Below, in pieces: positions 4,530 through 53,165 of a DNA stretch of 64,000 nucleotides. The translations under genes were made by a program, and so were the position numbers. Within the stretch, counting starts at the first letter, position 1. Each line of letters begins with the position of its first letter. The stretch is from Capillimicrobium parvum (lineage in GTDB: Bacteria; Actinomycetota; Thermoleophilia; Solirubrobacterales; Solirubrobacteraceae), in assembly GCF_021172045.1 (NCBI RefSeq), contig NZ_CP087164.1, forward strand, positions 5,456,001 through 5,520,000. The letters run 5' to 3'. The notes under the pieces are model-generated. The model was given only the letters and a program-made list of their open reading frames with translations. It did not search any database and was not told where the DNA came from.

Positions 4530-4581
4530 CTACTGCTTCGTGAACGTCGTCGCCGCTCCGCTACTGCTTCGTGAACGTCGT
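4520..4581. repeat. 31-bp perfect tandem duplication joining tRNA-Sec and the protease 3' end
   Basis: Bases 4520-4550 and 4551-4581 are identical. Each copy contains the 3' acceptor strand and discriminator of tRNA-Sec (GCCGCTCCG) followed by the reverse complement of the last codons and stop of the protease gene (Phe-Thr-Lys-Gln-stop). The left copy completes the tRNA; the right copy completes the protease, whose stop codon is at 4561-4563. Either copy could serve the tRNA or the protease, so a single ancestral copy must have served both genes with their 3' ends overlapping or abutting. Confidence 0.95.
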
Positions 4582-7500: not shown

Positions 7501-7737
7501 CGGCTTCGCGTCGCCTCGGACGGCGACGTCGACCAGCACCCGCTCCGCGCCGTCTAGCGTGAGCCGGCTGTCGGCCGCGAGCGGCGCGATGCTCTGCCCG
7601 CGCGCGTTCGCGACGGCGAGCCGGCGCAGGCTCGAATCGATCTTGCCGTCAGGCCCGGACACCGACTCCGCGGCCGCCGTGGCGGAAACGGCGAGGACGA
7701 GCAGCGACGACAGCAGCAGGACCTTCAGCGCCTTCAT
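4561..7737 (-). CDS. secreted S8-type serine peptidase with six C-terminal IPT/TIG repeats
   Basis: Exported protein of 1058 residues. It has a signal peptide (residues 1-24, KALKVLLLSSLLVLAVSATA), a propeptide-like region to about 160, a subtilase-like domain (about 165-570) and six IPT/TIG immunoglobulin-like repeats of about 80 residues to the C-terminus. Visible active-site features are the aspartate in VKVGVMSDS (about 177), the oxyanion Asn in SAGN (about 293) and the serine in GTSAAAPSAAGVAAL. The usual HGTxVA histidine motif is absent; the aligned segment reads DEGRAMAEII, as I recall for a divergent S8/S53-like subgroup. TIG repeats alternate between two types. ATG 7737 has GGGGG nine bases upstream; the in-frame GTG 7743 is too close to it. 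No cell-wall anchor is seen. Confidence 0.87.
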   Translation of the reverse strand: MKALKVLLLSSLLVLAVSATAAAESVSGPDGKIDSSLRRLAVANARGQSIAPLAADSRLTLDGAERVLVDVAVRGDAKPAGAMLAAAGMQVTGTSDAAPVALVEGWLAVGQAGAVAQLDVTRAISPVTAWGTDDAGQETGETDVGAVTSAGDAAHNGPTARALGATGAGVKVGVMSDSISHVGTGVSGSKATGDLPANVQILDDHIGGTDEGRAMAEIIYDMAPGITDLLFATGGGGPVLKANNITALANAGVRVIADDIFYLSEPFFQDGVVAQAVDAAKAAGVGYFASAGNRARQSWQGTYAASANQNNDFGGGDQVQSVASVAPGRFIQIVLQWDEPWGQAQTDLDAGLVDMANVNGGFLRTSIDDNVATGLPRETITWTNTTGSAKTVGLVIQRYAGARNPLMKWIGFGGTYAIEHDTKSDAINPDAASASGSLAVAAIDAAEPGHDDVESFSSRGLKTRLFDKDGVRFGTPQVRQKPQLAAADGVQTTVPGFKPFYGTSAAAPSAAGVAALVISARPSMNVDELRAIMTNPANAIDCSLAGNPDTDCGSGFILADKAVAQAKGASAAPAITSFTPANGPTGTTVTVNGTNFTGATAVAFNGRAATFTVASATKVTAKVPDGATTGRIKVTTPKGTATSATDFTPTLTVTSLAPASGPAGTVVTIAGAGFNPGSVVKFNGVTAAKTFKSATSLTATVPATATTGKVTVTNTTGVAGTAASPAAFTVTAPPAPSITSFTPTGGPAGTVVTITGRNLTGASAVTFNAKAAPTFTVVSPTQIKATVPATATTGRIGVRTAGGTATSPGTFTMLAVTSLTPASGPTGSQVTIAGSGFNATSVVKFNGAKAVSTFVSATSLKATVPASATTGRVTVSNPTGAVGTATSAASFTVTAPPVPKITTLSPGSGLTGAQVTITGSGFTGATAVSFNGLAAGTFTAASDTKVTATVPNGATTGKVRVVAPGGTATSATDFTVRLSITSFSPGRGPQNATVTVNGVGFDASSRVRFNGAAATTTLVSATNLRAVVPATATTGPITVTNTSSPSGTVTSATTFTKQ

Positions 7738-7899: not shown

Positions 7900-9198
7900 G
7901 TGAGCGACGCACACGACGCCGACCCCCGCCGGGCTCTGCCCTCGGTCGACCGGCTGGCGACCGCGGTGGCCCGCGCCGAGCTCGCCGAGCGCCGGGCCGC
8001 GCTGCACGACGGCGGCGCCCCGCCGCAGGACGACCTCGTCGCGGCGGCCCGGCGGCGCCTGCGGCCGTCGCTGCGCAGGGTGCTCAACGCGACCGGCGTC
8101 GTCGTGCACACGAACCTCGGCCGCGCGCCTCTGAGCACGGCGGCGCAGGCGGCGGTCGCGGACGTCGCCGCGGGGTACAGCAACCTCGAGCTCGACCTGG
8201 CCGACGGCCGGCGCGGCTCCCGCCAGGACCACGTCGCCGCGCTGCTGCGCGAGCTCACCGGCGCGGAGGCGGCGCTGGCGGTCAACAACTGCGCCGCGGC
8301 GACGCTCCTCGCGGTCGCCGCGCTGGCCGGGCCGGACCGCGAGGTGATCGTGTCGCGCGGCCAGCTCATCGAGATCGGCGGCTCGTTCCGGATCCCCGAG
8401 GTCGTCGCGCAGGCCGGCGCCCGGCTCGTCGAGGTGGGCACGACGAACCGCACCCGCGTCGACGACTACCGCCGCGCGATCGGCGAGCGCACCGCCGCCG
8501 TGCTGCGCGCCCACCAGTCGAACTTCCGCACGGTCGGCTTCGTCGAGGAGGCCGCCATCGAGGAGCTCTGCAACCTGGGCGTGGCGGTCATCGACGACGT
8601 CGGCTCCGGCGCCCTCGCCGAGGATCTGCCGCAGCTGGCCGGCGAACCCCCGGTGCGCCGCTCGGTGCGCGCCGGCGCCGATCTCGTGGCGTTCTCCGCC
8701 GACAAGCTCCTCGGCGGCCCGCAGGCCGGGCTGCTCGTCGGCCGCCACGAGGCGATCGACCGCTGCGCGCGCCACCCGCTCGCCCGCGCGCTGCGCATCG
8801 ACAAGCTCTCCCTCGCGGCGCTCGAGGCGACCCTGCAGCTGTACCGCGACCCCGAGCTCGCCCGCCGCGAGGTCCCGGTCCTCGCGATGCTCGACGCACC
8901 GCCGGAGGTCCTGGAGCGGCGCGCTCGACGCCTCGCCGAGGGCGTCGGCGGCGAGCTCGGCACCGCGGTCGCGCGCGCCGGGGGAGGAGCGCTGCCGCTG
9001 CTCGAGCTCGACGGGCCGGCCGTCGCGCTCGACCCGGGGCCGGGCGGGGCCGACGCCCTCGCCGCCGCGCTGCGCGGCGGCGACCCGCCCGTCGTCGGCC
9101 GCATCCGCGCGGGCCGGGTGATCCTCGACCCGCGCACGCTCGCCGACGACGAGCTCGACGCGGCGATCGCCGCGGTCCGCGCGGCGCGGCGACCGTGA
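7900..9198 (+). CDS. selA: L-seryl-tRNA(Sec) selenium transferase SelA
   Basis: PLP enzyme of 432 residues that converts seryl-tRNA(Sec) to selenocysteinyl-tRNA(Sec) with selenophosphate. It shows family stretches VLNATGVVVHTNLGRAPLS (about 61-79), VNNCAAATLL, a GQLIEIGGSFRIP segment, and the PLP lysine K269 in FSADKLLGGPQAG. The length is a little below the E. coli protein but within the family range. The start is GTG 7900. It is transcribed away from the protease, with about 160 bases between them for both promoters, and overlaps selB by four bases. Confidence 0.95.
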   Translation: MSDAHDADPRRALPSVDRLATAVARAELAERRAALHDGGAPPQDDLVAAARRRLRPSLRRVLNATGVVVHTNLGRAPLSTAAQAAVADVAAGYSNLELDLADGRRGSRQDHVAALLRELTGAEAALAVNNCAAATLLAVAALAGPDREVIVSRGQLIEIGGSFRIPEVVAQAGARLVEVGTTNRTRVDDYRRAIGERTAAVLRAHQSNFRTVGFVEEAAIEELCNLGVAVIDDVGSGALAEDLPQLAGEPPVRRSVRAGADLVAFSADKLLGGPQAGLLVGRHEAIDRCARHPLARALRIDKLSLAALEATLQLYRDPELARREVPVLAMLDAPPEVLERRARRLAEGVGGELGTAVARAGGGALPLLELDGPAVALDPGPGGADALAAALRGGDPPVVGRIRAGRVILDPRTLADDELDAAIAAVRAARRP

Positions 9199-12703: not shown

Positions 12704-14245
12704 TCAGAACGCGCCGCGGCGCGAGATGACCGCCGGAAGGGTCTTCAGCAGGATCGTGAAGTCCAGGAAGACCGACCAGCGCTCGAGGTAGAGGAAGTCG
12801 AGCCGGACGAGGTCGTCGAAGTCGAGATCCGAGCGGCCCGAGACCTGCCAGAGCCCGGTGATGCCGGGCAGGACCAGGTAGCGCTTCTTGTGCCAGTCCT
12901 CGAGGCGGTCGAAGTCGCGCTGCGGGAGCGGCCGCGGCCCGACGAGCGACATCTCGCCGCGCAGGACGTTCATCAGCTGCGGCAGCTCGTCGATCGAGTA
13001 CCGGCGCAGCAGCCGGCCCACCGGCGTCACGCGCGGGTCGTCGCGGATCTTGAAGATCGCCCCGCCGGCCTCGTTGAGCGCCTCGAGCTCGGCCTGCTGG
13101 CGGTCGGCGCCGTGGTACATCGTGCGGAACTTGAAGCAGGCGAACGGGCTGCCGCCGATGCCCGGCCGCATCGAGTGGTAGAGCACCGGCCCGCGCGAGG
13201 TGATCCGGACCGCCGCGGCGCTGGCGATCAGGACCGGGCTGAAGAAGAACAGCAGCAGCGAGGCGCCGACCAGGTCGAACGTCCGCTTGAGCAGGTAGTC
13301 GAAGCCCTCGAAGACCGGCGGCTTGAGCTCGAACAGCGGCACCGACTGCCCCGGGACGAACTCGGCGCGATGCACGAGGATCTCCATCGTCGACGGGGCG
13401 ATGCGCACCCGCACGCCCATCGCGTGACAGCGGTCGACCAGGTCGACCGCCCGGTCCTCGGGGAAGTCCGGGTCGGCGATGATCACCTCGTCGATGCGGT
13501 TGCCCCGCATGATCTCCGGCAGGTCCTCGAAGCGCCCGAGCGACCGCAGGCCGTTGTCCGGCCGCGGGCTCAGCGAGACGAACCCGACGACGTTGATCTG
13601 CGCGTGCCCGCCGTCGTCGAGCGCGTGCGCGACGTCTTCGATGTGGCTGCCCGAGCCGACGAGCACGGCGCGCCGCTGATAGCCGGCCGCGCGCAGCAGC
13701 GCGCCGGTCAGCCACTCGTAGCCGAAGCGGAAGCTCGAGACGTACAGCACGCCGAAGAACAGCGAGCCGTAGAAGATGTAGTAGCTGGAGAAGTCCTTGC
13801 CGCTGACGAGCGCGTAGATCAGCGCGACGAGCGTGACCTGGAACAGGCAGGCGACGATCCGCGTGAGGCCGGGGCGCTCCGCCCGGTCGGCGTAGAGCGC
13901 GGATCGCGCGAACAGCAGCACCGTGAGCAGGTATGCGAAGGAGACGATGTCCTTCGTCTGCTGGAACACCGCGTGGGTGTCGAGGCCGCCGCGGACCGCC
14001 GCCTTGAGCGCCAGCGCGGTGAAGATCGCCAGGAAGACCGCGACGAGGTCGAGGCCCATGAGCGACAGGATGCGCGCGGTGCGCCGCAGCGTCTCCAGGC
14101 GCAGGAGGAAGGACAGCGCCGGCGGGCGCTTGCGGCGCATGTCGACACCGGGCGGGGCGTAGGTCGACATGCGGACGTACGGGATGTTCCCGCCGTCGTT
14201 CTCCGACCGCTCCTGCGATCCGGCTTGCGCTGTGTCCTGGGCCAT
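12704..14245 (-). CDS. polyprenyl-phosphate sugar-1-phosphate transferase (exopolysaccharide priming type)
   Basis: Membrane enzyme of about 513 residues that starts glycan assembly by moving a sugar-1-phosphate from a nucleotide sugar to undecaprenyl phosphate. It has four N-terminal helices, a central CoA-binding-like Rossmann domain (RRAVLVGSGSHIEDVAHAL), another membrane helix, and the C-terminal transferase core with KFRTMY, the DELPQL segment, GEMSLVGPRP and PGITGLWQVSGRS. This is the WbaP/CpsE/EpsL architecture. The ATG at 14245 is preceded by GGAG, unusually close; an upstream in-frame start at 14329 would lie inside the next gene and is less likely. The neighbouring UDP-glucuronate decarboxylase could supply its sugar. 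Confidence 0.9.
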   Translation of the reverse strand: MAQDTAQAGSQERSENDGGNIPYVRMSTYAPPGVDMRRKRPPALSFLLRLETLRRTARILSLMGLDLVAVFLAIFTALALKAAVRGGLDTHAVFQQTKDIVSFAYLLTVLLFARSALYADRAERPGLTRIVACLFQVTLVALIYALVSGKDFSSYYIFYGSLFFGVLYVSSFRFGYEWLTGALLRAAGYQRRAVLVGSGSHIEDVAHALDDGGHAQINVVGFVSLSPRPDNGLRSLGRFEDLPEIMRGNRIDEVIIADPDFPEDRAVDLVDRCHAMGVRVRIAPSTMEILVHRAEFVPGQSVPLFELKPPVFEGFDYLLKRTFDLVGASLLLFFFSPVLIASAAAVRITSRGPVLYHSMRPGIGGSPFACFKFRTMYHGADRQQAELEALNEAGGAIFKIRDDPRVTPVGRLLRRYSIDELPQLMNVLRGEMSLVGPRPLPQRDFDRLEDWHKKRYLVLPGITGLWQVSGRSDLDFDDLVRLDFLYLERWSVFLDFTILLKTLPAVISRRGAF

Positions 14246-14294
14246 TTCTCCAATCCGCTGCAACGGCGCAGCTTCGGCGAAGTTGTGAGGTAGG

Positions 14295-15245
14295 TCAGTG
14301 CGCGCCGGTGCCGACGAGCGTCTCGACACCCGCTTCGTCGATCGTCCGGCGCAGTCCTTCGCGCAGGCCGACCTCGGGCTCCCAGCCCAGCACCTGCTTG
14401 GCCAGGCTCGTATCGGGCTGACGAACCTTCGGATCGTCCGTGGGCAGCGCCTCGTGGACGACCTCGGACTTCGAGCCGGTGACCTCGATCACCGCGTTCG
14501 CCAGCTCCATCAGGGTGTACTCGTCGGGATTGCCGATGTTCACCGGGTAGTGATAGTCGGACTCGGCCAGCGCGATGATGCCCCGGATCAGGTCGCTGAC
14601 GTAGCAGAAGCTCCGGGTCTGGCTGCCGTCGCCGAAGACGGTCAGCGGGCGGTCCTGCAGGGCCTGGCGCAGGAACGTCGGGATCGCGCGGCCGTCGTGG
14701 GGGCGCATCCGCGAGCCGTAGGAGTTGAAGATCCGCACGATCGAGGTGTCCACGCCCTGCTGGCGGTGGTAGGCCATCGTCAGCGCCTCGGCGTAGCGCT
14801 TGGCCTCGTCGTAGACGCCGCGCGGGCCGATCGGGTTCACGTGGCCCCAGTAGGACTCGGGCTGGGGGTGGACCTGCGGATCGCCGTAGACCTCGCTCGT
14901 CGAGGCCAGCAGGAAGCGCGCGCGGTGCAGCTTGGCCAGGCCGAGCGTGTGATGCGTGCCGTACGAGCCGACCTTCAGCGTGTGCAGCGGCAGCCGCAGG
15001 TAGTCGATCGGCGACGCCGGCGACGCGAGGTGGTAGACGACGTCGACCGGCTCCTCCACGAAGTAGGGGTCGGTGATGTCGACGTTGAGGTGGACGAACT
15101 CGGGCTTGCGGATGTGCTCGATGTTCGCCAGCGAGCCCGTCTCGAGGTTGTCGACGCAGATGACGCGGTGGCCGCGAGCCAGCAGTTCATCGCACAGATG
15201 CGACCCGAGAAAGCCCGCGCCACCGGTGACGACGCACGTGGCCAT
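14295..15245 (-). CDS. UDP-glucuronate decarboxylase (UDP-xylose synthase) type NAD epimerase
   Basis: Extended SDR enzyme of 316 residues. It has the NAD motif [15 protein letters not shown] at the N-terminus, [21 protein letters not shown] (family hallmark of UDP-xylose synthases, quoted here in two parts: [10 protein letters not shown] and LRLPLHTL), STSEVYGDP and the catalytic YDEAK. It converts UDP-glucuronate to UDP-xylose through a 4-keto intermediate. ATG 15245 starts directly at the first beta strand. It lies upstream of the sugar transferase on the same strand, which fits a nucleotide-sugar supply for exopolysaccharide or wall glycan. Confidence 0.9.
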
Positions 15246-36320: not shown

Positions 36321-37253
<933 letters not shown>

Positions 37254-42699: not shown

Positions 42700-43779
42700 A
42701 TGGCTGCTCTGGTGACGGCACGGACTCCACACGAACCTGGAGGCGGGAACGTCTCCACCACCCTCAGCGAGCTCGAGCGCAAGCTCCGCCGCCTCGAGGC
42801 CGAGCTGACATCCGTCGCCCCGGCCCAAGCGGCGAACGGCGGCGACCAGGCGGCGCCTCCGACCGCCGCGGCTGCGCCGCCCCCGCCGGAGGTCTCACCG
42901 CCGGCACCGGTCGCCGCGCCCGCCTCGGCGCCCGTCGGATCCCGTCCCGCGACCGGCATGGGCGAAGCCGACCGCCTGCTCGCCGAGGCCCGCGCCCGCC
43001 TGGGCGGCCTGACGGGACAGGTCGACGAGCTGCTGCGCTTCCGCGAGCAGCTGCATCGCACCGCCCGCGAGCTCGAGGCCGAGTACAGCCGGGTGCTCGA
43101 GCGCATCGGTGCGCCACCTGCCCCCGCTGCCGCGCCCGGCCCCACCGCCGCCCCCGCCCCCGCTACCGCGCCTGCTCCTGCCACCTGGCCGGCGCCCGCC
43201 CCCGCCACCGCGCCTGCTCCTGCCGCCGCGCCCGCCCCCACCGCCGCGCCCGCGACCGCGCCTGCTCCTGCCGCCGCGCCGCCGCAGGCCGACCCCCAGC
43301 TTCACACGCCGGCCTCTCCGGCACTGCCCGCCCAGCCCGCCGTCCCCGGCGTGGGAACCGCGCTGCCCGACGCCGCGTACGGCACGCCGCCCCCCGCACC
43401 CGAGCCCGCCGCGTACGGCACGCCGCCCGCCGCGCCCGAGCCCGCCGCACCCACGCCGGCCCCCGTCGCCCCCGCGCCGCCCCCACCCGGCGACCACGAC
43501 GACATGACCTTCGAGGGCCCCGTCGTCATCGACGCCGGCCCGTTCTCGGACATCACCTCCCTCAGCACGTTCGAGCAGGGCCTCGCGCGCGTGGCGGGAG
43601 TCGAGGACGTCTACGTCTCGGGCTTCGAGGGCAACCGCGCGCTCATCGAGCTGCGCGTCGCCGCTCCCGTCGCGCTCGTGCGCGAGATGCGCGCCGCGGG
43701 GACCGGCGAGCTCATCGTCACGGAGGCCGCGGCCGGTCGCCTCCGCGTCGACGTCCGACCGGCCGGGACGGGAGGCTAG
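42700..43779 (+). CDS. Ala/Pro-rich coiled-coil protein with a C-terminal alpha/beta domain
   Basis: First gene of the eight-gene block, about 359 residues. A short helix (TLSELERKLRRLEAELTSV) and Ala/Pro linker lead to a coiled coil (about 88-135, DRLLAEARARLGGLTGQVDE onward), then about 140 residues of Pro/Ala repeats. The C-terminal 85 residues form a beta-alpha-beta-beta pattern (VVIDAGPFSDITSLSTFEQ, VEDVYVSGFEGNRALIEL) like a ferredoxin-fold adaptor domain. There is no membrane helix. I infer a cytoplasmic scaffold. The start is uncertain: the frame is open from 42592, and ATG 42700 was chosen. An SD-like GGAGGCGGG at 42740 has no start codon after it. Confidence 0.6.
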   Translation: MAALVTARTPHEPGGGNVSTTLSELERKLRRLEAELTSVAPAQAANGGDQAAPPTAAAAPPPPEVSPPAPVAAPASAPVGSRPATGMGEADRLLAEARARLGGLTGQVDELLRFREQLHRTARELEAEYSRVLERIGAPPAPAAAPGPTAAPAPATAPAPATWPAPAPATAPAPAAAPAPTAAPATAPAPAAAPPQADPQLHTPASPALPAQPAVPGVGTALPDAAYGTPPPAPEPAAYGTPPAAPEPAAPTPAPVAPAPPPPGDHDDMTFEGPVVIDAGPFSDITSLSTFEQGLARVAGVEDVYVSGFEGNRALIELRVAAPVALVREMRAAGTGELIVTEAAAGRLRVDVRPAGTGG

Positions 43780-43783
43780 GCCC

Positions 43784-44143
43784 ATGCCCCCGCAGCAGCG
43801 CGAGGACCGGTATCAGCCGCTGGCGCTGATCGGCGTGACGATGGTGGCGCTGCTCGGCTTCGCCGTGTTCTTCCTCTCCTTCCTCGTCGCGCCGCTGGCC
43901 ATCCTGCTCATCTTCTACGTGGGCTTCGCCGCCTCCGACCGCTCCCGCCGCCGCCGCAACGCCAGCGCGAGCGCCCACGCCAACGCCAACGCCGCGCCCG
44001 TCGCGGAGCCGCCCGGCGAGCCGGTCGCCGCCGTGCCTCCCGCCGAGCGCCACCGCGCCGCGACGCTGCTGGCCCGCGAGGCCCAGTACCGGCGCAACAC
44101 GATCGAGCGCCCGGACGACCCAGAGCCCCCCACCCCTCGATGA
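43784..44143 (+). CDS. small membrane protein with two helices
   Basis: Protein of 119 residues, starting four bases after the previous stop. Two hydrophobic segments (about 13-32 and 33-50, LIGVTMVALLGFAVFFLSFL and APLAILLIFYVGFAA) are followed by a basic cluster RSRRRR and a charged, Ala/Pro-rich cytoplasmic tail. It may anchor the neighbouring soluble proteins at the membrane. No family is recognised. Confidence 0.65.
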   Translation: MPPQQREDRYQPLALIGVTMVALLGFAVFFLSFLVAPLAILLIFYVGFAASDRSRRRRNASASAHANANAAPVAEPPGEPVAAVPPAERHRAATLLAREAQYRRNTIERPDDPEPPTPR

Positions 44144-44149
44144 GGCTCC

Positions 44150-44449
44150 ATGACCGATGATGCGCACGCCGCTATGGCCGTGGCGCTCGAAGCCGGCCTC
44201 GGCTACACCGGACTGCGCGGCTTCGAGCCCGATCCGAAGCTGTTCCACTACCTCCCGCCCACCCTCGCGTCACGCGAGCGGGCGGTGCCCGTGATCCTCG
44301 TGGGAGATCGGCTCAAGGTTGCGAGCTCGCGACCCGATCCTGATCTCACCCTCGTGCGCCAGCGTTTTCCGTACTTGACCGTCGATATCGTCATCGCGCC
44401 CGCCGTCGAGATCGAGCGCGCGCTGCAACGCGCCTCAGGGACGAGCTGA
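44150..44449 (+). CDS. stand-alone GspE-N/MshEN-C-like domain
   Basis: Protein of 99 residues resembling the second half of a GspE N-terminal domain: helix HYLPPTLASRERAVPVILVG, strand DRLKVASSRPDPDLTLVRQ, then VDIVIAPAVEIERALQRA. In type II secretion and MSHA ATPases this region follows the cyclic-di-GMP-binding motif. It lacks that motif itself. It ends on ATG 44449 of the glycosyltransferase gene (TGATG), whose N-terminus carries two more domains of this kind, so the two proteins are probably partners. Confidence 0.68.
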   Translation: MTDDAHAAMAVALEAGLGYTGLRGFEPDPKLFHYLPPTLASRERAVPVILVGDRLKVASSRPDPDLTLVRQRFPYLTVDIVIAPAVEIERALQRASGTS

Positions 44450-46713
44450 TGCAGACCACGACCGCCCCCGAGCCGAGCCGGAGCTTCTACCGCCGCCTGG
44501 CCACGCACGCGGGACTGCCGTTCGCCGCGCTCGACCCCGCGCACCGCGAGGATCCCGACTTCTTCGAGATCAACCCGCTGGCCGCGCGCCTGCTCAGCGA
44601 GCAGATCTGCCGCTACCACCGCATGCTGCCCGTCTCCTACGCCAGCGGCGTGGTGACGATCGCGACGCCCGAGCCGTTCGACCAGGTCGCCCGCGAGGTG
44701 GCCACCGCCCTCACCGGCCGCTCGGTGCGCTTCGTGGTCAGCCCCGAGGAGGACGTCGACCGGGCCATCGACGAGACGTTCGACGCGATGCCGCTCGACG
44801 AGCCCGGCCGCGTCACCGAGCCGAGCTACCCCACCCGCATCGGCGACCTGCTCGTCGCCCGCGGGATCGCCACCGACGAGCAGGTGCGCGAGGCGCTCGA
44901 GGAGCAGGAGCGCACCGGCAGCCGCCTCGGCGACATCCTCGTGCACGCGGGGATCATCCACGAGCCGGAGCTCGTCGCGATCCTCGCCGAGCAGTTCCAG
45001 CTCCCGCTCGTCGACCTCTCCGAGTACGACCCGGACCCGGAGGCGCTCGCGCTCATCCCCGAGCCGCTGGCCCGCCACCTGCGCGTCGTGCCGATCGCGG
45101 TCGACGACACGACGCTGTACCTGGCGATCGCCGACGTCCTCGACGACGACACGGTCGCCGCGCTGCGCGAGCACACGCATCTCGAGCTGCGCGGCTTCCT
45201 CGCCTCCCGCAACTCGATCGACGAGCTGCTGCAGCGCGTCCACGGAACCGAGTACGTCACGGTCGCGCGCTCCGAGCTGCTCAACCGCTTCCCCGAGGAG
45301 TCCGCCAACCGCGTCCTCTCCGGCGCCCAGAAGGGCTTCTTCCTCGCGATCGCGCTGATCTTCCTGCTCTGCCTGATCCTGGAGCCGAAGCTCACCCTCA
45401 TCGTGACGATGGCGCTGTCGAGCCTCTTCTACCTCTCGACGTCGCTGTACAAGTTCATGCTCACGTACTCGGCGCTCAGCCACCAGTACGAGGTGGGGGT
45501 CACCGACGAGGAGGTCGCCGCCCTCGACGAGCGCGACCTGCCGATGTACACGATCCTCATCCCGCTGTACCGGGAGGCGTCGGTCGTCCCGCGGCTCGTG
45601 GCCGGCATCGGCGGACTGGACTACCCGAAGACGAAGCTCGACGTCCGCCTGCTCTGCGAGGAGGACGACGACGAGACGGTCCCCGCGATCCAGGCGATGG
45701 ACCTGCCGCCGCACTTCAAGATCGTCGTCGTCCCGGACGCGCAGCCGAAGACGAAGCCGAAGGCGTGCAACTACGGCCTGCTGCAGGCCGACGGCAAGTA
45801 CGTCGTCATCTTCGACGCCGAGGACCGCCCGGATCCCGATCAGCTCAAGAAGATCGTCGTCGCCTTCACGAAGGTCGACCCGAGCGTCACCTGCATCCAG
45901 GCCAAGCTCAACTACTTCAACTCGGACCAGAACCTGCTCACGCGGTGGTTCACGACCGAGTACTCGATGCACTTCGATCTCCTGCTCCCGGGGCTGGACG
46001 CGCAGGACGTGCCGATCCCGCTCGGCGGCACCTCGAACCACTTCATCACGGACCGCCTGATCGACCTCGCGGCCTGGGATCCGTTCAACGTCACCGAGGA
46101 CGCCGACCTGGGCATCCGCCTGCACAAGGCGGGCTACAAGACGGCGATGATCGACTCGACGACGCTCGAGGAGGCCAACTCCGAGCTCAACAACTGGATC
46201 CGCCAGCGCTCGCGCTGGATCAAGGGCTACATCCAGACCTGGCTCGTGCACATGCGCCACCCGTTCCGGCTGATGCGCCAGGTGGGCTTCAAGAGCTGGC
46301 TGAGCTTCCAGATGGTGGTCGGCGGGACGTTCATCTTCCTGCTGAACCCGATCTTCTGGGCGCTGACCACGCTGTTCTTCTTCACGGAGTCCAACCTGAT
46401 CCGCGAGCTCTTCCCGAGCTTCATCTTCTACGCGGCGGCGTTCCAGCTGTTCATCGGCAACTTCGTCTTCATGTACCTCAACGTCGCGGGGTGCGTGCAG
46501 CGCGGGTACTTCGACCTCGCGAAGTACGCGCTGCTGTCGCCGCTCTACTGGGGCCTCATGTCGCTGGCGGCCTGGAAGGGCTTCCTGCAGCTGTTCTACC
46601 GACCGTTCTACTGGGAGAAGACGGTCCACGGCCTCGACGCCGGCCACGCGTCGGCCGCACCGCCCGCGCCGCGCCGCGTGGGGCCCGCTCCCGACCGCAC
46701 CGCCGCTCGCTGA
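44449..46713 (+). CDS. glycosyltransferase 2 with N-terminal MshEN cyclic-di-GMP-binding domain
   Basis: Protein of 754 residues. Residues 40-112 form a GspE-N-like subdomain. Residues 130-153 and 159-182 are two 24-residue MshEN motifs separated by exactly five residues, with R130, G132, G139, Q153 and R159, G161, G168, Q182 at the consensus places. Another GspE-N-like subdomain covers 190-265. Two membrane helices (about 296-336) precede the GT2 catalytic domain with YTILIPLYREA, FDAED (DxD-like, 455-459), TED (549-551) and QRSRW (586-590), and four or five helices follow. This resembles NfrB of E. coli with the domain order reversed. It should polymerise or move a glycan at the membrane under cyclic-di-GMP control. 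Confidence 0.9.
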   Translation: MQTTTAPEPSRSFYRRLATHAGLPFAALDPAHREDPDFFEINPLAARLLSEQICRYHRMLPVSYASGVVTIATPEPFDQVAREVATALTGRSVRFVVSPEEDVDRAIDETFDAMPLDEPGRVTEPSYPTRIGDLLVARGIATDEQVREALEEQERTGSRLGDILVHAGIIHEPELVAILAEQFQLPLVDLSEYDPDPEALALIPEPLARHLRVVPIAVDDTTLYLAIADVLDDDTVAALREHTHLELRGFLASRNSIDELLQRVHGTEYVTVARSELLNRFPEESANRVLSGAQKGFFLAIALIFLLCLILEPKLTLIVTMALSSLFYLSTSLYKFMLTYSALSHQYEVGVTDEEVAALDERDLPMYTILIPLYREASVVPRLVAGIGGLDYPKTKLDVRLLCEEDDDETVPAIQAMDLPPHFKIVVVPDAQPKTKPKACNYGLLQADGKYVVIFDAEDRPDPDQLKKIVVAFTKVDPSVTCIQAKLNYFNSDQNLLTRWFTTEYSMHFDLLLPGLDAQDVPIPLGGTSNHFITDRLIDLAAWDPFNVTEDADLGIRLHKAGYKTAMIDSTTLEEANSELNNWIRQRSRWIKGYIQTWLVHMRHPFRLMRQVGFKSWLSFQMVVGGTFIFLLNPIFWALTTLFFFTESNLIRELFPSFIFYAAAFQLFIGNFVFMYLNVAGCVQRGYFDLAKYALLSPLYWGLMSLAAWKGFLQLFYRPFYWEKTVHGLDAGHASAAPPAPRRVGPAPDRTAAR

Positions 46714-48449
46714 TGGCCGTCGCCGCACCGCCGCCCGGCCTGGGGCACCGCGCCCACACCTCCGGCACCCCACTCGACGACCGCCCGTACCGCCCCGAGG
46801 TCGCCATCCCCGGGGCCCGCATGGGCCTGCTGATGTTCGCCGTGTTCGCGGCCTTCTACTTCCTCGTCGGCTACAAGGTGACGATCGACGACCACGTCGT
46901 CGTCTTCGACGCGCTCAACCGCCTCACCGACGCGTACCTGGTGTGGTGGAACGACCCGCCGAAGCTCGCCGCGATCGGCTTCCTGTTCCCACCGCTGACG
47001 ACGTTCGCCTTCCTGCCGCTCACGGTGGTCAAGCCGGTGGCGACGTCGCTGGTGGCGCTGCCGCTGCTGACCTCGATCTTCGCCGCGGCCGGCATCGTCT
47101 GGCTGGACCGCACGCTCGCGCGCTGCGAGATGCCGCTGGTCTTCCGCCTGCCGCTGATCCTCGCGTTCGGCCTCAACCCGATGTGGGTCTTCTACGCGGG
47201 CAACGGCATGAGCGAGGCCGTCTACCTGGCGATGCTCGCGTTCTGCCTGTACGGCTTCATCTCGTGGTACGAGACGACCGAGCCGCGCTTCCTCATCGCC
47301 GCCGGCTTCGGCTTCGCGCTGCTCGTCGTCACGCGCTACGCGTTCATCGTCTGGGCGCTGCTCGTGGCGCTGCTGATCGGCGTCGCGCTCGTGCGCCGTC
47401 GCGCGAGCCGGGTGGAGGTCGAGGGCTCGGTGATCGCGTTCTGCGCGCCCGTCGTCTACGCCCTGGCGCTGTGGATCCTGTTCAACGCGCTGATCGTCGG
47501 CGAGCCGTTCGGCTGGCTGTCGGACCAGACCTCGACGCAGGCGGTCAACGCCACCGGCATCGACGTCAGCGGCTCGCTCGGCTTCGACGAGGTGTCGAGG
47601 CGGTTGCTCGAGCTCAACGTGGCGGTGTTCCCGCTCGCGTTCGCGGCGGTCCCGGCGCTCGTCATCGCGTTCCTCGGCCAGCGCAACGACATGGCGCTGT
47701 GGCTGGCCAGCTTCATCGTGCTCGGCATCGTGATCATGGGCGCGCATGCGCTGATCTCCCAGAACGAGGGACTGCTGACGCTGCGCGACTCGATGCCGAT
47801 GGCGCTCACGTCGCTCGTCGGCGCGGCCTGGGTGTACCGAAGTTACGCCGCCTTCCGATTGGTCGTCTGGGGCGTGACCCTGGTGCTGCTGATCGTCAAC
47901 CTCTTCACGGCCTGGAAGGGCATGCAGGACTACCCCTTCCAGTCGCTCGAGCAGGCGTTCACCCGCGCGATCTCCACCGGCGACAGCCAGGAGGGGACGT
48001 CGTCGCGCGGCGGCTTCAACGTGGGCATCGACCCCGAGGCCCAGATGGCGCAGCACATCAAGGACCGCATCCACACGAACAACTCGATCCTGACCGACAA
48101 CGCGCAGACGTTCGGGGTGATCCTGCTCAACGGCCAGCCGCAGGTGTTCTGGGACCGCATCGACAAGGGCGACGCGAAGTGGAACTCGGTGCTCAACGAC
48201 CCGTACGGGAAGGTGCGCTACCTGCTCGCGGCGTACAACCCGCGGTCCGGCGACCTGATCACGCGCCACTACCCGGGCCTGAACGCCGGCGCCGTGCCGG
48301 GGATGACCGTCGTCTACCGGACCGAGCGCTACATCCTCGTCCGCGTCGCGACGGCCAACCCGATCGCGCCGGTGCGCCGGACCACCACGAACCGCAACGG
48401 CAACGGGACGGGGACGGGGTCGCAGACCTTCGCCCGGCCCGGCGGCTGA
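46713..48449 (+). CDS. multi-pass GT-C-like membrane glycosyltransferase or glycan exporter
   Basis: Protein of 578 residues with about ten or eleven helices (from LLMFAVFAAFYFLVGYKV at about 38) and a soluble C-terminal part (about 420-578) containing NSILTDNAQTFGVILLNGQ and YPGLNAGAVPGMTVVYRTERY. The overall plan, with a large extracytoplasmic tail and acidic residues after the first helix (IDDHVVVFD), fits lipid-linked-sugar-dependent GT-C enzymes of the ArnT/PMT type, but no diagnostic motif is certain. It overlaps the GT2 gene stop by one base (TGATG). Confidence 0.72.
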   Translation: MAVAAPPPGLGHRAHTSGTPLDDRPYRPEVAIPGARMGLLMFAVFAAFYFLVGYKVTIDDHVVVFDALNRLTDAYLVWWNDPPKLAAIGFLFPPLTTFAFLPLTVVKPVATSLVALPLLTSIFAAAGIVWLDRTLARCEMPLVFRLPLILAFGLNPMWVFYAGNGMSEAVYLAMLAFCLYGFISWYETTEPRFLIAAGFGFALLVVTRYAFIVWALLVALLIGVALVRRRASRVEVEGSVIAFCAPVVYALALWILFNALIVGEPFGWLSDQTSTQAVNATGIDVSGSLGFDEVSRRLLELNVAVFPLAFAAVPALVIAFLGQRNDMALWLASFIVLGIVIMGAHALISQNEGLLTLRDSMPMALTSLVGAAWVYRSYAAFRLVVWGVTLVLLIVNLFTAWKGMQDYPFQSLEQAFTRAISTGDSQEGTSSRGGFNVGIDPEAQMAQHIKDRIHTNNSILTDNAQTFGVILLNGQPQVFWDRIDKGDAKWNSVLNDPYGKVRYLLAAYNPRSGDLITRHYPGLNAGAVPGMTVVYRTERYILVRVATANPIAPVRRTTTNRNGNGTGTGSQTFARPGG

Positions 48450-48479
48450 CGCCTCCGAGGCCGTTGGTAGCGTGAATCG

Positions 48480-48932
48480 ATGATGGCCGGCGACCTGACC
48501 GCGTCCGTGGGCGCCCGCGTCGAGGAGATCATGGCCGCCGCCCGGCAGGCGGCCGAGGCCCTCCAGCGCGAGGTCGACGAGGCGTCCGCGCGCCGGGCCA
48601 CCGAGGTGCGCCTCGACGCCGAGCGCGACGCCCAGCGCATCCGCGCCGAGGCGGAGTCCGCGGCGGCGCGCCACCTCGAGGAGGCCCGGCGCCAGGTCCA
48701 GACCTTCGCCGACGCGCGCGTGCGCCGCATCAGCGAGATCACGGACGCGCTCGTGGCGGCCGCCGAGAGCATCCCGGGCCGCCTCGAGGAGGCGGCCGAC
48801 GTGCGCCGCCAGATCGACGAGCTGATCGTCGCGCTCGGAGCGGCCGCCGAACAGGCCGCTCGGGAGGCGGGCCGGCCGGCGATTCGCCTGCCGGGGATCG
48901 CAGACCCGCCGCCGACCGAGGGCGACGGGTGA
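48480..48932 (+). CDS. DivIVA/ATP-synthase-b-like coiled-coil protein
   Basis: Protein of 150 residues, almost wholly helical. Residues 8-115 give heptads rich in Ala, Glu and Arg (IMAAARQAAEALQREVDEA, AQRIRAEAESAAARHLEEA). The tail is Pro-rich and acidic. There is no membrane helix. Such proteins mark poles or septa or form scaffolds. It lies 30 bases after the membrane gene and overlaps the following lipoprotein gene by four bases. Confidence 0.65.
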   Translation: MMAGDLTASVGARVEEIMAAARQAAEALQREVDEASARRATEVRLDAERDAQRIRAEAESAAARHLEEARRQVQTFADARVRRISEITDALVAAAESIPGRLEEAADVRRQIDELIVALGAAAEQAAREAGRPAIRLPGIADPPPTEGDG

Positions 48933-50302
48933 GCGGCCGCCTCGCCGCCGGCACGCTCGCGGCGGTGCTCGCCGCCCTCGGACTCGCCGCCTGCGGCGGC
49001 GACGGCGGCGGCGGCACCGAGACGGCGACGGTCGTCACGCGGACGGTCACCACGCCGCGCACCGCCCCGGCCACCACGACGCCGGCGCAGCCCAACGCGC
49101 CCGGCATCGGCGGCGCCGGCACGGAGGGGACGCCGGGCTCGGCGTCCACCGACACCGGCGCCGCGGGCGAGACCGGCAGCCTGAGCTCGACCTCGATCTT
49201 CCGGCCGTTCGCGGCGTCGAGCCCGTGGAACACGACGATCGTCGGCCAGGCGGTCGACGCCGACTCCGACCGGCTGATCGCCCAGGCGCAGGAGCGCATC
49301 GGGGTCACGGAGCGCGGCAACACGATCACGACGCAGCGCCGCCGGATCGACGACCCGCTCTTCATCAACACGACGGAGTGGACGGTCCCGATCGTCGACG
49401 AGGAGGGCGGTGTCGAAACGCGGATGGTCTGCCGCCAGATCCCGCCCGACTGCGGCGACGGGCGCAACGTCGACACCCTCCTGATCCCGCCCGACGCGTC
49501 GCCGCTGCCGCAGTTCGACGGCTGGTTCACGGTGCTCAACCGGCGCGAGGGCGTCGCGTATGACCTGTGGCGCGCGCGCCGGGGCTCCGACAACGTCATG
49601 TCCTACCAGTTCATGCGCAAGTGGGCGCTCAACGGCCCGGGCTACCAGCGACCGAACTCGGTCAGCGCGCGCGGGTCCGGCCTGCCGCTGTTCGCCGGCG
49701 TGCTGCTGCCCGAGGAGGTCGCCGCCGGGCGCATCGAGCACGCGCTCGCGATCTCGGTCCCCGGCCCGGCGCAGCGCAGCTACGTCCAGCCCGCATCAGC
49801 GACGGACGGCAACGGCCGCACGAGCTCGCTGCCCGAGGGCGCCCGGATCCGCCTGCGCACGGACCGCTTCGACGACCTCGTCTCGCTGCCGACCTGCGGG
49901 CCGGGCCGGCTGCGCGACAGCCAGGGCGAGATCCGCACGGACTGCATCGCCCCGCGCACGAACCGCAAGGCCGCGCGGGCGATCCTCGACTCGCTGCGCC
50001 GGTACGGCGCGATCGTCGTCGACCGGTCGCGCACGCCGACCCTGTACGCGAAGCAGAACGCCGACTGGAACCAGCTCCTGCGCGGGCCCGACGGCCGGCT
50101 GCTGACGGCCAGCGGCCGCGACCCGCTGCCGCGCAACCTCGCCCGTGAGCGCAACCAGGGCACGCCGCTGCTGCGCGGCAACGAGGTGCAGTTCCTGCGG
50201 CTCTCCGACTTCGAGGTCATGCAGCTGCCCGAGCTCCTGAAGTTCCCGCCGCTGGGCTCGACCGAGGTGTCCCCCCAGACCTTCACCCCGGTGATCCCGT
50301 GA
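48929..50302 (+). CDS. lipoprotein of unknown fold in the glycan block
   Basis: Protein of 457 residues with a lipobox (LGLAACGG, Cys about 23) and a Thr/Pro/Gly-rich linker (28-90). The large mature domain starts FRPFAASSPWNTTI and includes DPLFINTTEWTVPIVDEEGG, RREGVAYDLWRARRG, ISVPGPAQRSYVQPAS and RYGAIVVDRSRTPTLYAKQN. The SPWNT start and the GAIVVD end are conserved-looking, but I cannot name the family; a carbohydrate-active or glycan-binding role is only a guess from context. GTG start overlapping the coiled-coil gene; its own stop overlaps the next gene (GTGA). Confidence 0.68.
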   Translation: MSGRLAAGTLAAVLAALGLAACGGDGGGGTETATVVTRTVTTPRTAPATTTPAQPNAPGIGGAGTEGTPGSASTDTGAAGETGSLSSTSIFRPFAASSPWNTTIVGQAVDADSDRLIAQAQERIGVTERGNTITTQRRRIDDPLFINTTEWTVPIVDEEGGVETRMVCRQIPPDCGDGRNVDTLLIPPDASPLPQFDGWFTVLNRREGVAYDLWRARRGSDNVMSYQFMRKWALNGPGYQRPNSVSARGSGLPLFAGVLLPEEVAAGRIEHALAISVPGPAQRSYVQPASATDGNGRTSSLPEGARIRLRTDRFDDLVSLPTCGPGRLRDSQGEIRTDCIAPRTNRKAARAILDSLRRYGAIVVDRSRTPTLYAKQNADWNQLLRGPDGRLLTASGRDPLPRNLARERNQGTPLLRGNEVQFLRLSDFEVMQLPELLKFPPLGSTEVSPQTFTPVIP

Positions 50303-52041
50303 ACGTCCGCCTCGCCATCGCCGCGCTGCTCGCCGGCGTCGCCGCCGCGGTGCTCGTCGCGTGTGGCATCGACACGAGCGACTCCGGCACGTCGAGCGTC
50401 GCCGGGCCCGAGGGCACGACGAACACGAACACGGTGCGCCGCAACGCGCCGCCGCTGCCCGCCGCACCGGAGAACACGGTGCGCGTCGACGGCATCGAGG
50501 GCGGCCTGAGCACCGCCGCCACGAGCCGCTTCCTCGGCAGCTCGAGCGTCGGCGTCGCCCGCATCACCGCGGGCGAGGAGCAGGCGTTCGTGGACCTCTG
50601 CGCCGGCCGCGTCGACGTGATCGAGGTCGCCCGCCTGCCCACCGAGGCCGAGGTCCGCGCGTGCAACAACCGCGGCGTCGAGCTGTCCGAGCCGCTCGCC
50701 TCGGCGGCCGACGCGGAGGTCATCGCCACGAAGAACGAGGCCGACGTCGGCGGGGACTGCATCACCGTCCAGCAGGCGCGCGACATCTTCCGCGCCGGCT
50801 CGCCGTACACGACGTGGTCGCAGCTCGGCTTCTTCGACCTGCCGCTCACCACCACCGGTCGCCAGGACGGCTCGGGCAACTTCGAGTTCTTCGGCCAGGT
50901 GGTGCTCGGCGTCGACGACCCGTCGCTCGCCGACGTCCGCGCGGACTACGTCGTGGAGAACACGGACCTGCTCGAGCGCGAGGAGGTCGTGGGCCAGCGG
51001 CGCGTGACCGCCGCGCAGCGCCGCGTCGACGCGTACGAGGCGCGGCTGCGGCGCGAGACCGCCAGGGAGCGCCGGCAGGCGGTCGACGCGGCGGTCCGGA
51101 CGGCGGACCGCGCGGTGCTGCGCGCGATCGCCCGCGAGAACCAGGACCTGGCCCGCCGCAAGGTGACGCTCACCGCCGCCCAGGCGGCTCGGCTGGAGGC
51201 GCGCAACCGGGTGCGCAACATCCGCGCCAAGCGCCGCGCCGCGGCCCGCGTCAACGCCCGCTTCGACCGCGAGCTGCGCGACCGCGTCCTCCGCTATGCG
51301 CGCTCGCAGCTCGCCCTGGCTGAGGCGCCCGGCGTCGTCGGCGGCTTCCGCTTCACGTACTACGAGCTCTTCGAGGACCAGCTGCGCCCGATGGAGATCG
51401 ACTACGGCGTGCCGGTGACCGCGTCGGGCCAGCCCGTCACGCTCGACGACCTGTCCGACAAGGATCGGGAGCGGATCCTCGCCGCGCAGGGCGTCACGAC
51501 GCCGACGGTGCCCAACGTCGGGCCCGCCGCGACGGTGACCACGCCCGACGGCAACATCACGACGGTCCAGACGGCGACGGCGATCCCGGACCTCCCGGCG
51601 AGCCAGCTGCCGAAGAAGACCAAGGACGGCGAGACGATCTACCCGGGGCCGAACTGCGTGTTCCCGTCGCCGATCACGATCACCTCCGGCGCGTATCCGC
51701 TGTCGCGGCGCTTCTACCTGTTCACGTCGCGCCAGTCGCTGGAGCGCGACGAGGTCCGCGCCTACGCGCAGGCGTACCTGAAGAGCGCGCAGGCCCTGGC
51801 CACCGCGAACCGCCTCGTGCCGATCACCGACGCGCAGCTCGCCGAGGAGCTCGCGATCATCGAGAACAGGGGCCGCAAGCCCGCGGCGAAGCCGGCGACC
51901 ACCACGACGACGCGGACGGTCACGACGCCGTCCGGCACGACGACGGTGCGCACCGTGACGACCACCACCCCGGCCACCACCACCCCCCGCACGCAGACGA
52001 GCAGCGGCATCCCCGGCGTGTCCAGTCGCGGCGGCGGCTGA
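50299..52041 (+). CDS. PstS-like substrate-binding lipoprotein interrupted by a coiled coil
   Basis: Protein of 580 residues. The lipobox is VLVACG (Cys about 22). Residues 60-215 look like the first part of a phosphate-binding-type periplasmic protein (VRVDGIEGGLSTAATSRFL, DVIEVARLPTEAEV, ITVQQARDIFRAGSPYTTWS). A highly charged coiled coil of about 110 residues (about 225-340, many Arg and Ala) follows. Binding-protein character returns at about 345-370 (FRFTYYELFED) and 455-520 (ITSGAYPLSRRFYLFTSRQS). The end is a Thr-rich tail. No ABC permease or ATPase genes are near, so it may bind a ligand for signalling or assembly, not uptake. Confidence 0.72.
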   Translation: MNVRLAIAALLAGVAAAVLVACGIDTSDSGTSSVAGPEGTTNTNTVRRNAPPLPAAPENTVRVDGIEGGLSTAATSRFLGSSSVGVARITAGEEQAFVDLCAGRVDVIEVARLPTEAEVRACNNRGVELSEPLASAADAEVIATKNEADVGGDCITVQQARDIFRAGSPYTTWSQLGFFDLPLTTTGRQDGSGNFEFFGQVVLGVDDPSLADVRADYVVENTDLLEREEVVGQRRVTAAQRRVDAYEARLRRETARERRQAVDAAVRTADRAVLRAIARENQDLARRKVTLTAAQAARLEARNRVRNIRAKRRAAARVNARFDRELRDRVLRYARSQLALAEAPGVVGGFRFTYYELFEDQLRPMEIDYGVPVTASGQPVTLDDLSDKDRERILAAQGVTTPTVPNVGPAATVTTPDGNITTVQTATAIPDLPASQLPKKTKDGETIYPGPNCVFPSPITITSGAYPLSRRFYLFTSRQSLERDEVRAYAQAYLKSAQALATANRLVPITDAQLAEELAIIENRGRKPAAKPATTTTTRTVTTPSGTTTVRTVTTTTPATTTPRTQTSSGIPGVSSRGGG

Positions 52042-52058: not shown

Positions 52059-53165
52059 ATGGCCCCTTCCGACACCATCTCCTTCGCCCGCGGCGCCCCG
52101 TCGCTCGACATCGTCGACGTCGAGGGCCTGCGCGAGGCGGCGGCGCTCGCCTTCGCCGAGGACCCGGCGGGCCTGACCGGCTACGGCACCGCGATCGGCT
52201 ACCCGCCCCTGCGCGCGTGGATCGCCGAGCAGCACGGCGTCGACCCGTCGCAGGTCATCGTCACGAACGGCTCGATGCAGGCCGATGCGTTCCTCTTCGA
52301 GACGCTCGTCGGCGAAGGCGACAGCGTGGTCGTGGAGAAGCCCACGTACGACCGCACGCTGCTGAGCCTGCGCAAGTACCGCCGCGCTGACATCCACATG
52401 ATCGACCTGGAGCCCGACGGCCTCGACGTCACGGCGCTCGGCGCCGCCCTGCGCGACGGCCTCAAGCCGACGCTCGCCCACGTCATCCCGAACTTCCAGA
52501 ACCCGGCGGGCTACACGCTGTCGCGCGAGAAGCGCTCGGCGCTGCTGGCGCTCGCCCGGGAGCACGACTTCACGATCTTCGAGGACGACCCGTACGTCGC
52601 GCTGCGCTTCGCCGGCGAGGCGCTGCCCACCATGCTCTCGCTCGACGAGCACGGCACGGTCGTCTACGCGTCGTCGTTCTCCAAGACGGTGTGCCCCGGC
52701 GTGCGCGTCGGCTACCTCGTCGGGCCGGCGGAGCTCATCGCCCGCATCACGGCGCTGGCGACCCACACGTACATCTCACCCTCGATGGTCGCCCAGGGCA
52801 TCGTCCACCAGTTCTGCGCGAGCGGCCGGATCCGCAGCTCGATCGAGACGGTCAAGGCCGCCCTCGCCGAGCGCGCGGGCGTCCTCTGCGCGGCGCTCGA
52901 GCGCGAGATCCCGGATGCGCGGTTCGTGGCGCCGGAGGGCGGCTACTTCCTGTGGGTCGAGCTGCCCGAGGGCACGGACGTCGCGGCGCTGTTCACCGCG
53001 GCGGCCGAGCGCGGCGTGCAGATCGTCAAGGGCACCGACTTCCTGCTGGAGGGCGGCGAGAACACCCTGCGGCTCGCGTACTCGGGCGTGACGCCCGAGG
53101 AGATCGACGAGGGCGTGCGCCGGCTGGCGGAGGCCTACGAGGCGCTCGCTCCGGCGGCCGCGTAG
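52059..53165 (+). CDS. PLP-dependent class I/II aminotransferase (2-aminoadipate/LysN-like)
   Basis: Fold-type I enzyme of 368 residues. Family signs are SFARGAPSLDIVDVEGLRE, GYGTAIGYPPLRAWIAEQHG, VTNGSMQADAFLFE, PNFQNPAGYTLSREKR (substrate/PLP Asn and Tyr) and the PLP lysine in SSFSKTVCPGVRVGY. It resembles MocR-type aminotransferase domains without the DNA-binding part. The donor and acceptor are unknown. It starts 17 bases after the lipoprotein gene, so it may be read through from that block, though its function looks unrelated. Confidence 0.88.
   Translation: MAPSDTISFARGAPSLDIVDVEGLREAAALAFAEDPAGLTGYGTAIGYPPLRAWIAEQHGVDPSQVIVTNGSMQADAFLFETLVGEGDSVVVEKPTYDRTLLSLRKYRRADIHMIDLEPDGLDVTALGAALRDGLKPTLAHVIPNFQNPAGYTLSREKRSALLALAREHDFTIFEDDPYVALRFAGEALPTMLSLDEHGTVVYASSFSKTVCPGVRVGYLVGPAELIARITALATHTYISPSMVAQGIVHQFCASGRIRSSIETVKAALAERAGVLCAALEREIPDARFVAPEGGYFLWVELPEGTDVAALFTAAAERGVQIVKGTDFLLEGGENTLRLAYSGVTPEEIDEGVRRLAEAYEALAPAAA

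What the first reader, a model, noticed from the sequence alone, without database searches (positions are those of the whole stretch)
42700..52041. Eight-gene block: candidate cyclic-di-GMP-controlled envelope glycan machine
Eight genes run in one direction with overlaps or gaps of at most 30 bases: Ala/Pro coiled-coil scaffold, two-helix membrane protein, GspE-N-like fragment, MshEN-glycosyltransferase, GT-C-like membrane protein, DivIVA-like coiled coil, and two lipoproteins. The combination has both synthetic (GT2, GT-C) and envelope-facing (lipoprotein) parts plus polar/scaffold proteins, but no ABC transporter, flippase or secretin. I do not know a described system with this set. The seen facts are the order, overlaps and motifs; the joint function is inference.
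Basis: partly seen in the sequence, partly recalled or inferred. Interest (0 to 1): 0.85.

Follow-up and report, generated by a model that had tools for sequence, protein, structure and literature searches.

The report
c-di-GMP-gated exopolysaccharide synthase operon
This gene block most likely makes a surface sugar polymer when the bacterial signal c-di-GMP is high; its catalytic core belongs to a known but little-studied family (XagB/Sfz2), while two lipoproteins conserved with it in soil actinobacteria are new partners, one carrying a domain otherwise seen in phage tails.

Summary
The eight-gene block is real and its order is conserved. The core is D (MshEN + GT2) followed by E (multi-pass membrane protein). 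D has a tandem c-di-GMP signature (NF053729, 6.9e-18) and the DxD/TED/QxxRW motifs of processive synthases. D is the XagB/Sfz2 type of exopolysaccharide synthase; E is homologous to Sfz3, encoded after Sfz2 in the Mariprofundus stalk cluster (hhalign E 1.5e-32). Across phyla D-E sits beside BcsB, GGDEF, ManC, GH5 or GH113 genes. The c-di-GMP-glycan reading is well supported, although 'no described system' is only partly right. New is the actinobacterial version: lipoproteins G and H occur in exactly the same 18 of 299 Thermoleophilia genomes, 16 of which have D within about 5 kb (the other two are contig breaks), recur in Nocardioides and Aeromicrobium, and are confined to one D clade. None of those loci has a BcsB gene, nor does this genome. 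G folds confidently (pLDDT 91), has no Pfam family or PDB match, and shares its domain with Gordonia-phage minor tail proteins. H is a PstS-type fold with a helical insert. I propose G and H as outer-face subunits of this synthase. The sugar, and the roles of E, G and H, are inferred. F is not DivIVA by Pfam.

The parts
42700..43779 (+). A: Ala/Pro-rich coiled-coil protein with a small conserved C-terminal domain
   Evidence: ORF; C-terminal domain conserved in L013, L014, L092, L104, L110 and others; no Pfam family
43784..44143 (+). B: short membrane hairpin protein with an FLVAP-type motif
   Evidence: hydropathy; similar hairpin just upstream of D in L013, L014, L015, L017, L018, L093, L101 and in Nocardioides L112-L115, L148
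44150..44449 (+). C: stand-alone MshEN/GspE-N-like fragment lacking the tandem c-di-GMP motif
   Evidence: PF05157 7e-12; conserved in L013-L016; sequence
44449..46713 (+). D: MshEN-GT2 membrane glycosyltransferase (XagB/Sfz2 type), predicted c-di-GMP-activated polysaccharide synthase
   Evidence: PF05157 3.9e-34, PF13641 4.1e-23; NF053729 6.9e-18, CelA model 2.1e-18; motifs; tree
44836..44994 (+). c-di-GMP-binding signature inside D (residues 130-182)
   Evidence: NF053729 residues 130-182; two 24-residue motifs with 5-residue spacer, pattern of PMC5013675
46713..48449 (+). E: multi-pass membrane protein, GT-C-like by topology, homologous to Sfz3 of the Mariprofundus stalk cluster
   Evidence: hhalign A4 vs A6 probability 99.9, E 1.5e-32, 472 columns; directly beside D across phyla; at least 9 hydrophobic segments; weak GPI mannosyltransferase match E 0.03
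48480..48932 (+). F: short cytoplasmic coiled coil, not DivIVA by profile
   Evidence: homologues in L013-L016, L090, L091
48929..50302 (+). G: lipoprotein; globular domain (residues 91-447) of an unannotated family shared with Gordonia phage minor tail proteins
   Evidence: lipobox; AF2 pLDDT 90.9; no PDB match; BFVD E 1.2e-14; PHROG 17388 in 34 of 39 members; tblastn E 1e-5
50299..52041 (+). H: lipoprotein with PstS-type substrate-binding fold and a helical insert
   Evidence: PF12849 1.6e-9; PDB 4jwo E 1.2e-33 with profile A3; lipobox
52059..53165 (+). Aminotransferase class I/II, 17 bp after H; possibly co-transcribed, probably not part of the machine
   Evidence: PF00155 3.3e-39; follows H also in L013 and L015 but not seen after H in L014, L016-L019

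Best explanation
A c-di-GMP-gated, synthase-dependent exopolysaccharide system of a monoderm actinobacterium. Shown here: D joins a c-di-GMP-type MshEN domain to a BcsA-like GT2 membrane synthase; E sits beside it and is homologous to Sfz3; G and H are co-inherited lipoproteins. Inferred: c-di-GMP binding to D releases the GT2 domain, which polymerises a nucleotide-sugar (beta-glucan or beta-(gluco)mannan type) and extrudes the chain through its own membrane helices; E, a GT-C-like protein, adds side sugars from a lipid-linked donor or helps translocation; G (glycan-binding or glycan-processing domain) and H (repurposed binding-protein fold) receive, anchor or trim the chain on the outer face, taking the place that BcsB holds in other D-E operons; A, B, C and F are cytoplasmic or membrane accessories for assembly or localisation.
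For: c-di-GMP signature in D and in 21 of 22 clade members; 12 GGDEF matches over cut-off in this genome. Catalytic motifs in nearly all of 104 relatives. GT2 part matches cellulose synthase models best. Neighbours of D-E in relatives: BcsB, GGDEF, ManC, polyprenyl-type GT2, GtrA, GH5, GH113; GGDEF beside D also within this class (L103-L105) and GGDEF-EAL in L017. D-E-G-H synteny in Thermoleophilia, Nocardioides and Aeromicrobium; G and H in the same 18 of 299 genomes, 17 of which have D; G/H confined to one D clade, 4 label changes against 22.6 shuffled. No BcsB in this genome, none at E < 1e-20 in any G/H locus. XagB contributes to biofilm in Xanthomonas (PMC3609779); NfrB shows that MshEN gates a GT2 synthase (PMC8669469).
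Against: No experiment on any member of this clade. The tandem c-di-GMP motif is degenerate in Nocardioides and Patulibacter relatives. Absence of BcsB may reflect phylogeny rather than replacement. No sugar-nucleotide gene lies in the block, so the polymer is unknown. GT-C assignment of E rests on topology, Sfz3 homology and a weak PDB match (E 0.03). G-H roles rest on location, co-inheritance and fold only. No promoter could be recognised, so co-transcription is not shown.
Confidence: 0.7

Rival explanations
1. D is a non-processive, c-di-GMP-regulated glycosyltransferase that makes a lipid-linked sugar, and E (GT-C) uses it to glycosylate a cell-wall polymer, lipoglycan or protein; G and H are acceptors or carriers.
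For: GT-C proteins normally use lipid-linked donors (general knowledge); many relatives carry polyprenyl-type GT2, GtrA and ManC genes.
Against: DxD, TED and QxxRW with flanking helices are the processive-synthase set; BcsB and GH5/GH113 beside relatives fit a polymer.
Confidence: 0.2
2. The conserved unit is only D-E; G-H form a separate module (for example glycan or phosphate sensing or scavenging) that is co-located but works independently.
For: G224 has G-H upstream of D-E rather than downstream; N. rubriscoriae (L121) and others keep D-E without detectable G-H; H has a PstS-type fold.
Against: G and H never occur (strong hits) without D within about 5 kb except on two truncated contigs; F-G and G-H overlap by 4 bp in the window; they track one D clade; no ABC permease in the block.
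Confidence: 0.25
3. Type IV pilus / type II secretion-related device, given the GspE-N domains.
For: MshEN/GspE-N domains in C and D.
Against: No ATPase, pilin, platform or secretin domain in any of the eight proteins; MshEN is known outside pilus ATPases (PMC5013675).
Confidence: 0.02

Closest known systems
XagB (xagABCD) of Xanthomonas and Sfz2/Sfz3 of the Mariprofundus stalk cluster
   Same: N-terminal GspE-N/MshEN plus C-terminal GT2; a membrane protein directly after it, homologous to E; all in one D tree (L171 is M. ferrooxydans PV-1, L167 a Xanthomonas)
   Different: Those lie with BcsB-like and GH genes in diderms; here no BcsB, and lipoproteins G and H plus A, B, C, F are present
NfrB (nfrBA-ybcH, E. 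coli)
   Same: GT2 synthase gated by an MshEN c-di-GMP domain; one exopolysaccharide operon
   Different: Domain order reversed (GT2 first in NfrB); no NfrA-like outer-membrane pore; the NfrB model matches D only over the MshEN part, residues 126-279
Bacterial cellulose synthase BcsA-BcsB
   Same: GT2 motif set; CelA model matches D 342-700; BcsB beside many D relatives
   Different: No PilZ domain found in D; no BcsB in this genome
PstS-type phosphate-binding proteins (for H)
   Same: PBP fold, 4jwo E 1.2e-33
   Different: No PstCAB in the block; long helical insert; the DGSG-like segment varies in the alignment
PHROG 17388 minor tail proteins of Gordonia phages (for G)
   Same: Same domain by fold (BFVD E 1.2e-14), profile and tblastn
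   Different: G is a cellular lipoprotein in a synthase operon, not a virion protein

Membership tests
XagB/Sfz2-type MshEN-GT2 synthase | N-terminal MshEN/GspE-N and C-terminal GT2 in one membrane protein | tested here: met
XagB/Sfz2-type MshEN-GT2 synthase | DxD, TED, QxxRW | tested here: met
   DAED 456, TED 549, QRSRW 586
XagB/Sfz2-type MshEN-GT2 synthase | Sfz3-like membrane partner gene next to it | tested here: met
   E vs Sfz3-type profile, probability 99.9, E 1.5e-32
complete sfz-type cluster | BcsB-like partner in the locus, as in Sfz | tested here: not met
   no BcsB in the genome; so the full sfz layout is not claimed, only the D-E core
c-di-GMP effector of MshEN type | two 24-residue motifs, 5-residue spacer | tested here: met
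   (D only; C lacks it)
c-di-GMP effector of MshEN type | binds c-di-GMP | not testable with these tools
   needs protein
NfrB | GT2 N-terminal, MshEN C-terminal | tested here: not met
   order reversed; NfrB per PMC8669469
NfrB | NfrA-like outer-membrane export protein | tested here: not met
   no such domain in the eight proteins
BcsA cellulose synthase | C-terminal PilZ domain | tested here: not met
   no PilZ match in D
BcsA cellulose synthase | makes beta-1,4-glucan | not testable with these tools
   product unknown
GT-C glycosyltransferase (E) | multi-pass fold with catalytic acidic residue in the first outer loop | tested here: inconclusive
   at least 9 hydrophobic segments; D67 nearly invariant; GPI mannosyltransferase match only E 0.03
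PstS phosphate-binding protein (H) | PBP fold | tested here: met
PstS phosphate-binding protein (H) | pstCAB transporter genes alongside | tested here: not met
   none among the eight genes or directly flanking
DivIVA (F) | DivIVA profile match | tested here: not met
   no DivIVA match at E <= 1 in Pfam or NCBIfam
phage minor tail domain family PHROG 17388 (G) | profile match | tested here: met
   34 of 39 family members, best 1.2e-17; G itself 2e-7 over residues 119-206 of the trimmed protein

The most novel reading that the evidence does not exclude
G and H form a new exo-face module that replaces BcsB in monoderm c-di-GMP-gated polysaccharide synthases, and the G domain is a glycan-recognition or glycan-processing fold shared between host synthase operons and actinophage tails, so that phages recognise or cut the polymer with a relative of the protein that handles it in the host.
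Probability: 0.3. Interest if true: 0.72.

Novelty: new variant of a known kind. Interest (0 to 1): 0.52.

Why it matters
c-di-GMP outputs in Actinomycetota outside Streptomyces are hardly described. This gives a concrete, widely distributed candidate effector (D) with a fixed partner set, links it to the Xag and iron-stalk synthases, and points to an unannotated, confidently folded lipoprotein family (G) with a phage-tail relative that can be tested directly for glycan binding or cleavage.

Tried and rejected
First AF2 model of G with 8 sequences was poor (pLDDT 47); repeated with 39 sequences, trimmed of the disordered leader (pLDDT 90.9). Foldseek on PDB gave nothing at E <= 0.001, and VIA-align 2 only Z < 3 on residues 61-144, shared with unrelated small domains; this does not prove a new fold. 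A strict 24-residue regex passes only 8 of 25 clade members; NF053729 (21 of 22) is the fairer test, yet Nocardioides motifs are visibly degenerate. Promoter/terminator scan was uninformative at this GC. Literature searches for MshEN with Paenibacillus or for Thermoleophilia found no description of the D-E-G-H set. Type IV pilus/T2SS reading rejected for lack of any ATPase, pilin or secretin. The many long antisense ORFs are taken as high-GC shadows of the real genes.

Full report
WHAT IS THERE. Eight + strand genes run from 42700 to 52041 with gaps/overlaps of +4, +6, -1, -1, +30, -4, -4 bp. I call them A-H. Pfam/NCBIfam: C is an MshEN fragment; D is MshEN + GT2; H has a PBP_like_2/PstS-type segment; A, B, E, F, G have no significant family. 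G and H carry lipoboxes, E at least nine hydrophobic segments, B a membrane hairpin. The window lies at 5456001-5520000 of a 5.95-Mb single-contig genome. Its same-family relative G020 and same-genus relative G003 are named Solirubrobacteraceae / Solirubrobacterales MAGs (contigs matching), so this is a thermoleophilian actinomycete, hence a monoderm (general knowledge). An aminotransferase begins 17 bp after H and follows H in two relatives, but was not seen after H in others, so I do not count it in.

THE CORE D-E. D carries exactly the MshEN pattern of Wang et al. (PMC5013675): two 24-residue motifs at residues 130-153 and 159-182, 5 residues apart; NF053729 scores 64 bits against a cut-off of 38. 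The GT2 part has DAED, TED and QRSRW and matches cellulose synthase models best. A GTDB scan returned 80 loci with D relatives in many phyla, and E homologues lie directly beside or close to D in Actinomycetota, Chloroflexota, Bacillota and Armatimonadota. In Proteobacteria and Bacteroidota the next gene is instead an Sfz3-type protein; profile-profile comparison shows this to be homologous to E over 472 columns (probability 99.9, E 1.5e-32). One of these loci is Mariprofundus ferrooxydans PV-1 itself (L171), where the BcsB-like, MshEN-GT2, 501-aa membrane and GH113 genes correspond to the published sfz1-4 stalk cluster (PMC8250860; PMC4643136). The Xanthomonas relative (L167) corresponds to XagB by architecture (inference); xagB is needed for the raised biofilm of an rpfG mutant (PMC3609779).

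NEIGHBOURS POINT TO A C-DI-GMP-CONTROLLED POLYMER. Pfam confirms, next to D in relatives: BcsB (L129, L141, L166, L178), GGDEF (L104 in this class; L133, L166), GGDEF-EAL (L017 in this family), a ManC-type nucleotidyltransferase (L132), polyprenyl-type GT2 and GtrA (L094, L133, L138), GH5 (L112, L120, L166) and GH113, a beta-mannanase family (L171). By home-made profiles these recur in many loci. The window's genome has 12 GGDEF matches over cut-off.

G AND H ARE CO-INHERITED PARTNERS. In 299 genomes of the class, strong G hits (E < 1e-100) and strong H hits (E < 1e-60) fall in the same 18 genomes, 17 of which have D; the exception (G001) is a 5-kb contig ending in E, and G036 carries G-H-E on an 8-kb contig apart from its two D copies. 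Hypergeometric values (3e-29 for G vs H, 7e-20 for G vs D) ignore relatedness and are only descriptive. The order D-E-(F)-G-H also holds in six Nocardioides and in Aeromicrobium. In G224 G-H lie upstream of D-E. On a D tree of 104 rows the 25 G/H-linked rows fall in a 28-row clade (SH-aLRT 98), needing 4 label changes against 22.6 shuffled. No G/H locus has a BcsB hit at E < 1e-20; of 29 genomes with D, or G and H, only three Patulibacter-like ones have BcsB, and it lies elsewhere. Replacement of BcsB by G-H is therefore a reasonable but unproven reading.

WHAT G AND H ARE. With 39 homologues G models at pLDDT 90.9. No PDB chain matches, nor does any Pfam or NCBIfam family describe it. The viral library returns phage tail proteins (Gordonia phage Guillaume minor tail protein, E 1.2e-14), PHROG 17388 'minor tail protein' matches 34 of 39 members, and tblastn finds 37 Gordonia phage records at about 28-30% identity. 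Tail proteins meet cell-surface glycans, so a glycan-binding or glycan-processing role is my inference. Invariant residues include D197, H271, P288-A289, G304, G360, D365. H is a PstS-type fold (4jwo, E 1.2e-33) with a helical insert, no transporter genes nearby, and a variable DGSG-like segment: probably repurposed rather than a phosphate transporter part.

LIMITS. The c-di-GMP motif weakens in Patulibacter and Nocardioides relatives, though 21 of 22 clade members still match NF053729. Polymer identity, E's activity and G/H function are not shown. 'DivIVA-like' for F is not supported. Co-transcription is inferred from spacing only.

VERDICT. The finding is real, and its interpretation as a c-di-GMP-controlled envelope glycan machine is largely right, but its core is a known kind of system; the new part is the actinobacterial, BcsB-less form with lipoproteins G and H.

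Noticed in passing
window 4437-4530 and 7900-9198: tRNA-SeC gene with a SelA gene (PF03841, 3.7e-125) nearby: this actinomycete encodes selenocysteine machinery.
   Followed up: partly
window 36321-37013 (-): Collagen-like repeat protein (PF01391 8.6e-9).
   Followed up: no
window 1533-3008 (+): Protein with a weak, C-terminally incomplete GGDEF match, about 40 kb from the block.
   Followed up: no
window 12704-15245 (-): Bacterial sugar transferase (PF02397) and an NAD-dependent epimerase/GDP-mannose-dehydratase-like gene side by side: a second, lipid-linked glycan route in the same window.
   Followed up: no
window 4561-7737 (-): Subtilase with several IPT/TIG domains.
   Followed up: no
L018:2995-4584, L104:13273-14574, L112:17862-18950, L120:17175-18290 and others: An unannotated secreted protein family lies just downstream of H in many relatives, some members with collagen-like repeats; it does not follow H in the window.
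   Followed up: partly
L107:4425-5609, L019:2726-4084, L106:4138-5460, L101:5492-6676: A family without Pfam match, looking like a secreted TIM-barrel glycosidase (inference from sequence), sits beside the block in Patulibacter-like genomes.
   Followed up: partly
L020 (G036 contig 81): Two D copies in one locus, with a polyprenyl-type GT2, a Wzx-like membrane protein (no Pfam match) and a PAS-EAL protein.
   Followed up: partly
G family across Thermoleophilia: Distant G-domain proteins bring the total to 124 of 299 genomes, with several copies in some and no Pfam annotation.
   Followed up: partly
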